NCBI RefSeq assembly: GCF_000336935.1
Contig: NZ_AOME01000078.1
Coordinates: 9,160-66,825, forward strand
Length of the DNA: 57,666 nucleotides
DNA from: Halococcus salifodinae DSM 8989
Lineage (GTDB): Archaea; Halobacteriota; Halobacteria; Halobacteriales; Halococcaceae
Direction of reading: 5' to 3'
Part shown: positions 30,425 to 31,051 of the stretch, one piece after another
Numbering within the stretch: position 1 is the first letter of the stretch
How the letters are laid out: every line of letters starts with the position of its first letter
Translations under genes and position numbers: made by a program
The notes under the pieces: generated by a model
What the model saw: the letters and a program-made list of their open reading frames with translations, nothing else
Database searches by the model: none
Told to the model about the DNA's origin: nothing

Positions 30425-30553
30425 TGGGCCCTGTCGGATTCGAACCAACGACCACTCGGTGTCTCATGTCATCCGAGGGTCGCACTGAGACGGCGGTGCA
30501 TACCTTCAGATGTCAGTATGAGCCGAGCGCTCTTACCACTGAGCTAAGGGCCC
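30425..30553 (-). tRNA. tRNA-Met(CAU), elongator, with intron
   Basis: Minus strand: acceptor GGGCCCT pairs with AGGGCCC, discriminator A73; D-arm GCTC...GAGC; anticodon stem CTCGG/CCGAG with loop CTCATA-A; T-arm GTTGG-TTCGAAT-CCGAC. The 37-nt 5' exon is 30517-30553, the 36-nt 3' exon is 30425-30460, and a 56-nt intron (30461-30516) lies after position 37. The 5' exon CTCAT can pair with ATGAG at the intron end, as expected for a bulge-helix-bulge splice site. Elongator tRNA-Met is known to carry an intron in haloarchaea. RtcB at 53.5 kb is the ligase needed to join the exons. Confidence 0.95.
30461..30516 (-). other. Intron of tRNA-Met
   Basis: 56 nt between positions 37 and 38 of the tRNA; the ends can pair with each other to present a splicing-endonuclease site. 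No ORF or box C/D-like guide is evident. Confidence 0.85.
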
Positions 30554-30676
30554 TTGATTGGTTTCTTCCTGTGTCTGGCCCTTTAGCTTACCGAATGTGC
30601 TTTCGGCGATCCACGATCGGATAAAAATGGTAAAATCACTCCGCTCGCCACGTTGCGCGCCGAAAGAAGCGCCGTC

Positions 30677-30835
30677 GTCAGATTCCGGCGGGATCTGACG
30701 GGCCGTGAGATTTCGCAGAAATCTCACGCCGTCGTGAAAACTCGATGAGTTTTCACGGGTCGTAAAATCGCGGAGCGATTTTACACCGTCGCGAGACTAC
30801 GTCTCGCGGGCCGTGAATTTCCGAAGAAAATTCAC
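30677..30835. repeat. Array of six consecutive, different 23-nt palindromes
   Basis: Hairpin 1 (30677-30699) arms GTCAGATTCC/GGGATCTGAC, loop GGC, one mismatch. Hairpin 2 (30705-30727) GTGAGATTTC/GAAATCTCAC, loop GCA, perfect. Hairpin 3 (30734-30756) GTGAAAACTC/GAGTTTTCAC, loop GAT, perfect. Hairpin 4 (30762-30784) GTAAAATCGC/GCGATTTTAC, loop GGA, perfect. Hairpin 5 (30790-30808) CGCGAGAC/GTCTCGCG, loop TAC, perfect. Hairpin 6 (30813-30835) GTGAATTTCC/GAAAATTCAC, loop GAA, one mismatch. Linkers alternate between GGGCC/GGGTC and GCCGTC/ACCGT. Centres are 25-29 nt apart. The stem sequences differ from each other, so these are not copies of one repeat. Confidence 0.95.
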
Positions 30836-30855
30836 GCCGCCGCCAGGGCTCGAAC
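30834..30855 (-). repeat. Displaced 22-bp copy of the tRNA-Asn 3' end
   Basis: Identical to 30978-30999 (T-arm and acceptor 3' strand of tRNA-Asn plus discriminator and one flanking base), 144 bp away in direct orientation. It looks like an attachment-site remnant or gene-conversion echo. Confidence 0.8.
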
Positions 30856-30978
30856 GCCGAAAGACGGTCGGCCTCACTTCGTTCGGCCGCTGCGACTTTC
30901 GAGCCCGACCCCTGTCGGGTTGCGCTTTCACGGCGCGCTGGTGACTCGCTCCGCTCGTCACGTTGCGCGCCGAAAAGA

Positions 30979-31051
30979 CGCCGCCGCCAGGGCTCGAACC
31001 TGGGACAACCTGGGTAACAACCAGGTGCTCTACCAACTGAGCTACGGCGGC
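30979..31051 (-). tRNA. tRNA-Asn(GUU)
   Basis: Minus strand, 73 nt: acceptor GCCGCCG/CGGCGGC, D-arm with GTTGGTAGAGC, anticodon stem CCTGG/CCAGG with loop TTGTTAC (anticodon GTT), T-arm CCAGG-TTCGAGC-CCTGG, discriminator G. No intron and no encoded CCA. It lies 85 nt before the divergent cca gene, whose product adds the CCA end. Confidence 0.96.

What the first reader, a model, noticed from the sequence alone, without database searches (positions are those of the whole stretch)
30677..30835. Six consecutive 10+3+10 palindromes with different stems and alternating linkers
Six inverted repeats stand in a row with centres 25-29 nt apart. Three are perfect 10-bp stems with 3-nt loops, two have one mismatch, one has a perfect 8-bp core. 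The stem sequences are unrelated (GTCAGATTCC, GTGAGATTTC, GTGAAAACTC, GTAAAATCGC, CGCGAGAC, GTGAATTTCC), so they are not copies of one repeat, yet each arm pair has stayed complementary. Linkers alternate GGGYC and RCCGTC. Chance cannot give this. It could be an ordered set of cruciforms, a multi-hairpin RNA from the tRNA-Asn read-through (minus strand), a substrate array for a recombinase, or a product of template switching that writes palindromes. The first two ideas would need stem conservation across strains.
Basis: seen in the sequence. Interest (0 to 1): 0.75.

Follow-up and report, generated by a model that had tools for sequence, protein, structure and literature searches.

The report
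Dispersed triloop palindrome arrays in Halococcus
The row of six tiny hairpins is real, and it is one cluster of a hairpin family scattered through the non-coding DNA of this salt-loving archaeon, whose arms change together and whose three-letter loops often appear flipped, as expected if DNA copying itself keeps rewriting them.

Summary
In detail: six 8-12 bp palindromes with exactly 3-nt loops, 25-29 nt apart, at 30676-30836 between tRNA-Asn and an intron-bearing tRNA-Met; 5000 shuffles never gave more than one. The genome is a Halococcus. The row is not a feature of the tRNA locus: a second species has 5 units there, one has remnants, others none. It is one run of a genome-wide family. In 208 kb of this genome's intergenic DNA, 97 perfect palindromes (arm >=9 bp) have a 3-nt loop, against 2-12 for any other loop length; coding DNA shows no peak. 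Family traits: 9-10 bp arms, C-G loop closure (96%), purine-rich 5' arm, loops GAA/TTC/GGA/TCC, ~27-nt pitch. Matched copies differ at 47% of loop sites, 12% of flank and 4% of stem sites (stems partly by sampling). In 41 of 95 copy pairs with different loops, one loop is the exact reverse complement of the other (15.6 expected). Stem changes are mostly two-sided. This is the footprint of replication template switching at hairpins. Best reading: REP/BIME-like mosaic repeats maintained by template switching, probably without locus-specific function. I found no earlier description of this archaeal class.

The parts
30425..30553 (-). tRNA-Met (CAT) gene with intron, downstream boundary of the spacer on the transcribed strand
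   Evidence: Rfam RF00005, 59 bits; not found by ARAGORN; CAT anticodon and intron read directly from the sequence
30676..30836 (.). array of six triloop palindromes
30676..30700 (.). unit 1, CGTCAGATTCC.GGC.GGGATCTGACG, one mismatch; inner stem shared with modules at L115:3320, L219:1714 and L243:17780
   Evidence: identical in G002
30702..30730 (.). unit 2, CGTGAGATTTC.GCA.GAAATCTCACG; in G002 CGTGAATTTTC.GAA.GAAAATTCACG with identical flanks
30733..30757 (.). unit 3, CGTGAAAACTC.GAT.GAGTTTTCACG, identical in G002
30762..30784 (.). unit 4, GTAAAATCGC.GGA.GCGATTTTAC; same inner 8 bp as CGAAAATCGC modules elsewhere in the genus
30790..30808 (.). unit 5, CGCGAGAC.TAC.GTCTCGCG; a degraded relative with the same loop in G006
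30812..30836 (.). unit 6, CGTGAATTTCC.GAA.GAAAATTCACG, one mismatch
30834..30855 (-). 22-nt exact duplicate of the tRNA-Asn 3' end region (30978-30999)
   Evidence: repeat family D4
30856..30977 (.). inserted segment with further inverted repeats, homologous in G008, absent in G002 and G006
30979..31051 (-). tRNA-Asn (GTT), upstream boundary of the spacer on the transcribed strand

Best explanation
The array is one run of a dispersed family of intergenic palindromes in Halococcus. Each unit is a 9-10 bp stem with a purine-rich 5' arm, a C-G pair closing the loop, and a 3-nt loop. Units are chained at about 27-nt pitch into mosaics in the style of bacterial REP/BIME repeats, and mosaics are duplicated, broken and reshuffled between species (shown). 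When a stem is single-stranded during replication it folds into a hairpin, and the polymerase switches template between the arms. One such event copies one arm onto the other, which keeps arms complementary although sequences drift, and flips the 3-nt loop (inferred from the footprints). The palindromes then persist without selection on any particular sequence. I think the tRNA-Asn array has no locus-specific function; a general structural role of such hairpins in the chromosome is possible but untested.
For: Triloop peak restricted to intergenic DNA: 97 versus 2-12 for other loop lengths, coding DNA 17 versus 10-27 (Halococcus pooled). Same consensus structure across 237 perfect intergenic palindromes, with C closing 96%, purine 87-96% at positions 5-8, and lengths of 9 (129) and 10 (95) dominating; 87 coding-region palindromes lack these biases. 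The window array fits the family pitch: among close neighbours in 1.2 Mb the commonest spacings are 26-28 nt, there are 12 runs of three or more, and this run of 6 is second to one of 8. Composite modules recur in all ten Halococcus genomes searched, in both orientations, with breaks between modules. Loop inversion: 41 exact reverse complements among 95 copy pairs with different loops, against 15.6 (max 27) in 2000 permutations; outside the GAA/TTC class 11 against 2.6 (max 8); at >=95% flank identity 11 of 16 changed loops are inversions. Per-site divergence: loop 0.465, flank 0.121, stem 0.043. Two-sided stem changes 44 against 22 one-sided; 16 of the 44 are transversions. In the array itself, unit 2 differs between G000 and G002 by two two-sided stem changes plus one loop base with 36 of 36 scored flank positions identical. 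Published template-switch footprints match: arm homogenization and spacer inversion, inversions only on arms longer than 9 bp, including a GAA to TTC case (PMC8604942); template switching can create hairpins and invert loops (PMC8794818).
Against: No loop inversion was seen inside the window array itself. Most copies compared are paralogues, so module conversion between copies can imitate two-sided changes; unit 2 of G002 resembles unit 6 of G000. Palindromes were collected by their pairing, which biases stems towards low and two-sided divergence. The sharp 9-10 bp length, purine-rich 5' arm and C-G closure are not predicted by template switching alone and point to some further constraint. Gene calls were heuristic and the survey covered 29% of the genome.
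Confidence: 0.68

Rival explanations
1. A structured RNA: the array is transcribed from tRNA-Asn and its hairpins are selected as RNA, so the arms covary.
For: Strong predicted fold of the minus strand, z -7.1. Arms differ by compensatory changes between G000 and G002. It lies between two co-directional tRNA genes.
Against: Absent at the same place in five related species and reshuffled in another. The family is palindromic on both strands, occurs in all gene contexts including divergent spacers, and loops flip between reverse complements at matched sites, which would change an RNA loop. Only a sub-threshold, presumably chance Rfam match besides the tRNAs.
Confidence: 0.08
2. A REP/RAYT-type system: units are mobilised as hairpins by a Y1 (HUH) transposase.
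For: Short extragenic palindromes in mosaics; Y1 transposases occur in 7 of 10 Halococcus genomes. IS605-related palindromic elements (PATEs) are known in Haloquadratum (PMC3119063).
Against: G002 and G008 give no Y1 match at 97-99% completeness yet carry many modules. There is no fixed sequence, no GTAG tag, and flanks vary by module.
Confidence: 0.08
3. Protein-bound or structural DNA hairpins: cruciforms or ssDNA hairpins selected genome-wide, for example for supercoil absorption or polymerase pausing. Template switching adds noise but selection sets length, purine strand and closing pair.
For: Sharp length of 9-10 bp, C-G closure 96%, GNA-type loops common, each unit of the array folds well as DNA. 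The same stem words recur in distant haloarchaeal families.
Against: Density varies widely between relatives, from about 0 to 1.2 per kb of intergenic DNA in small samples. No binding protein or phenotype is known to me. Whole units are gained and lost at orthologous spacers.
Confidence: 0.16

Closest known systems
Bacterial REP sequences and BIME mosaics (including the GTAG and CGTC super-families, PMC3733652)
   Same: Short extragenic palindromes, many copies, clustered in mosaics, uneven between relatives, modules of different stems side by side.
   Different: Here the loop is fixed at 3 nt while stem sequence is free within a purine/pyrimidine rule; no GTAG tag and no consistent CGTC tag; no link to a Y1 transposase; loops occur inverted; host is an archaeon.
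Template-switch mutation at hairpins (quasipalindrome correction, spacer inversion; PMC8794818, PMC8604942)
   Same: Arm homogenization, two-sided changes, exact loop inversion, short loop, arms of 9-10 bp or more.
   Different: Described for scattered events in rRNA genes and yeast coding genes; here the footprints pervade a dispersed repeat family.
PATEs of Haloquadratum walsbyi (PMC3119063)
   Same: Haloarchaeal, transposase-free, palindrome-bearing intergenic repeats.
   Different: PATEs are elements with palindromes near their termini, related to IS605 ends; here the palindromes make up the element itself in series.
Repetitive hairpin-forming elements of organelle genomes (PMC2800124)
   Same: Small hairpin elements spread through intergenic DNA (from title and abstract only).
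   Different: Organellar and eukaryotic; not compared in detail.

Membership tests
REP/BIME palindromic repeats | short palindromes in many extragenic copies | tested here: met
   97 perfect triloop palindromes in 208 kb intergenic DNA sampled, far fewer for other loops
REP/BIME palindromic repeats | organised in mosaics of several units | tested here: met
   12 runs of 3-8 units; recurring composite modules
REP/BIME palindromic repeats | a shared consensus sequence | tested here: not met
   many stem words; what is shared is arm length, loop length, C-G closure and purine bias
GTAG/CGTC REP super-families | unpaired GTAG or CGTC tag at one end; CGTC loops 4-5 nt | tested here: not met
   loops are 3 nt; the CGTC linker adjoins units 1, 3 and 5 of this array but flanks differ among modules elsewhere
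RAYT-mobilised REPs | REP-associated Y1 transposase in the genome | tested here: not met
   no PF01797 match in G002 and G008, which carry the family; flanking association not checked in genomes that have Y1 genes
PATE elements | element whose ends match IS605-type termini | not tested
   no IS605 element of this genome was compared
Template-switch hairpins | exact inversion of the loop between otherwise matched copies | tested here: met
   41 of 95 differing pairs, 15.6 expected by permutation; seen across the family, not in this array
Template-switch hairpins | two-sided (compensatory) arm changes in single events | tested here: inconclusive
   44 two-sided against 22 one-sided, including 16 transversions, and unit 2 of this array with unchanged flanks; but module conversion and sampling bias remain possible
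Conserved structured RNA of the tRNA locus | array present and conserved at orthologous loci | tested here: not met
   absent in G001, G003, G004, G008 and G009
Conserved structured RNA of the tRNA locus | stable transcript | not testable with these tools
   no expression data

The most novel reading that the evidence does not exclude
Haloarchaeal intergenic DNA carries a repeat class defined by hairpin geometry instead of sequence (9-10 bp purine/pyrimidine arms, C-G closed 3-nt loop, about 27-nt pitch). It is propagated and kept palindromic by replication template switching, with a geometry imposed by a hairpin-recognising factor that is still unknown.
Probability: 0.35. Interest if true: 0.8.

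Novelty: new variant of a known kind. Interest (0 to 1): 0.6.

Why it matters
How prokaryotic genomes acquire and keep thousands of short palindromes is an old question, and most answers invoke transposases or selection on RNA. Here is a natural family in which loop orientation acts as a built-in recorder of template switching, with dozens of matched copies in one genus of culturable archaea. It makes the rate and strand bias of template switching measurable, warns against reading compensatory changes as proof of RNA function, and shows that archaea have a BIME-like repeat landscape.

Tried and rejected
Mobile element, plasmid or virus origin of the array: no match of the 371-nt region in plasmid or phage collections; another composite module gives short matches in haloarchaeal plasmids and a third gives none in phages. 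Other copies of the array found through its linkers: patterns for both linkers hit only the known arrays in G000 and G002 plus unrelated sites. Rfam: only the tRNAs, plus a sub-threshold EFASI match of E 0.34. Y1 transposase dependence: rejected on G002 and G008. Literature on Halococcus palindromes: only an unrelated Streptomyces paper; RepRanger (PMC12306157) and a 118,019-genome hairpin survey (PMC13155455) do not mention 'halo' in their main text. Sampling nine genomes from other genera showed the triloop peak clearly in G096 and G105 but weak or absent elsewhere.

Full report
What is there. The stretch 30676-30836 holds six palindromes with 3-nt loops, centres 25-29 nt apart. In 5000 dinucleotide shuffles of the 171 nt, none had more than one such palindrome. 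The stretch lies on the transcribed side between tRNA-Asn (30979-31051, minus) and a tRNA-Met with an intron (30425-30553, minus). Each unit folds as DNA hairpin at -6.6 to -10.4 kcal/mol, z -3.9 to -7.7. The array is less GC-rich (0.56) than the window (0.65).

Where it comes from. A scan with the neighbouring CCA-adding enzyme gave Halococcus thailandensis and H. morrhuae as closest named records, on contigs of the same lengths as G009 and G001 of the same genus. The window is therefore from a Halococcus; I do not name the species.

The same spacer in relatives. G002 has five units at the orthologous place: one new, unit 1 identical including its mismatch, a changed unit 2, unit 3 identical, and one different last unit abutting tRNA-Asn directly. 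G006 has two degraded units. G008, G001, G003, G004 and G009 have tRNA-Asn followed by tRNA-Met without the array. So it is real and not an assembly product, but it is neither conserved nor fixed in content. Unit 2 differs between G000 and G002 at two stem positions on both arms and at one loop base, with all 36 scored flank positions identical. Unit 2 of G002 resembles unit 6 of G000, so conversion or unequal recombination within the array is possible.

The genome-wide family. I sampled 1.21 Mb of the genome (window included) and called genes with a codon model. Among 208 kb of intergenic DNA, perfect palindromes with arms of at least 9 bp numbered 97 for loop 3, against 11, 12, 11, 8, 5, 5, 4, 2 and 5 for loops 1, 2 and 4-10. 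In coding DNA the numbers were 10-27 without a peak at 3. Pooled Halococcus samples gave the same picture, with about one expected from shuffled intergenic DNA. The 237 perfect intergenic units from Halococcus share a geometry: closing pair C-G in 96%, G at the next position in 75%, purine in 87-96% at positions 5-8 from the loop, arm length 9 (129) or 10 (95). The 87 coding-region triloop palindromes show none of this. Loops are mostly TTC, GAA, GGA, TCC and TAC.

Chaining. In the sampled 1.2 Mb, neighbouring units are most often 26-28 nt apart, there are 12 runs of three to eight, and 67 of 364 longer spacers hold at least one unit. The window array, with six units at 25-29 nt, is the second longest run. 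Composite modules with shared flanks recur across the genome in both orientations, and three composite queries found copies in 9 or 10 of 10 Halococcus genomes, with matches breaking between modules. Units occur in divergent, convergent and tandem spacers. Unit 1 of the window shares its 8 inner stem bases, CAGATTCC, and unit 4 its 8 inner bases, AAAATCGC, with modules elsewhere. The array is AT-richer than the family average, so I read it as a diverged local subfamily.

Loop inversion. I matched unique intergenic units by flanks 13-30 nt from the centre, in a defined orientation, giving 159 nearest pairs. Loops were identical in 64, exact reverse complements in 41, and otherwise different in 54. 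Permuting loops among the 95 differing pairs gave 15.6 reverse complements on average and never more than 27 in 2000 runs. Leaving out GAA/TTC, 11 were seen against 2.6 (maximum 8). At flank identity of 95% or more, 11 of 16 changed loops were inversions. Loops differ at 46.5% of sites, flanks at 12.1%, stems at 4.3%; the stem figure is lowered by the pairing requirement. Two-sided stem changes (44) outnumber one-sided ones (22), and 16 of the 44 are transversions, which do not pass through a G-U intermediate.

Mechanism. Published work describes this set of footprints for DNA polymerase template switching between arms of short inverted repeats: arm homogenization and spacer inversion, inversions seen only on arms longer than 9 bp, spacer changes of 2-5 bp, and a GAA to TTC example (PMC8604942). 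A second study shows that template switching can create perfect hairpins and invert loops (PMC8794818). I infer that the same process maintains this family. What sets the narrow geometry is not explained by it. C-G closed GNA triloops are known to make unusually stable DNA mini-hairpins (my own knowledge; papers naming GCGAAGC were not read beyond the abstract), and such stability could favour hairpin extrusion and switching.

Spread. An exact stem pattern, CGAAAGRCGCNNNGCGYCTTTCG, occurs in all ten Halococcus genomes (4-17 sites each), in up to 38 sites of a relative in the same family, and in 65 of 146 genomes of the order, with no hit for the reversed control. Sampled genomes G096 and G105, of other families, also show the 3-nt loop peak; most others do not. 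Short pieces of one composite occur in haloarchaeal plasmids.

Known kinds. The nearest are REP/BIME repeats. A shared sequence consensus and the GTAG/CGTC tags are missing, and dependence on a Y1 transposase is not supported, because G002 and G008 have none detected. I therefore say it is organised like BIMEs but is not a member of the described REP super-families. I found no paper describing it in haloarchaea, within an open-access library.

Limits. Gene calls are heuristic, genome sampling is partial, paralogues and orthologues are mixed, and no expression data were available. The template-switching evidence rests on the family; in the array itself only the two-sided change of unit 2 bears on it.

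Noticed in passing
window 30834-30855 and 30978-30999: A 22-nt exact copy of the tRNA-Asn 3' end region lies 144 bp downstream of the gene; the segment between is shared with G008 but absent in G002 and G006, like a small insertion with a duplicated tRNA end.
   Followed up: partly
L003 (G002) and L007 (G001), downstream of tRNA-Met: The tRNA-Met 3' end (GTGGTTCGAATCCGACAGGGCCCA) is duplicated about 100 nt downstream in two species, the same pattern at a second tRNA gene.
   Followed up: no
window 30636-30665 and 30946-30975: A 30-nt direct repeat (93% identical) flanks the array and the inserted segment.
   Followed up: no
L122 9717-9766 (G000 contig 74): A transposon sequencing adapter (CTGTCTCTTATACACATCT in both directions around an N) sits inside a contig of this genome assembly.
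   Followed up: no
L018 1105-1222, L033 3076-3175, L075 3079-3156: In three other haloarchaea (L033 a Halovenus, L075 a Halorhabdus, L018 unnamed) the neighbourhood of tRNA-Asn also carries 3-4 palindromes in a row, with other sequences.
   Followed up: partly
L360-L379 (G096, G105): Two genomes of other haloarchaeal families show the same excess of 3-nt-loop palindromes, while close relatives of Halococcus (G012, G016) do not.
   Followed up: partly
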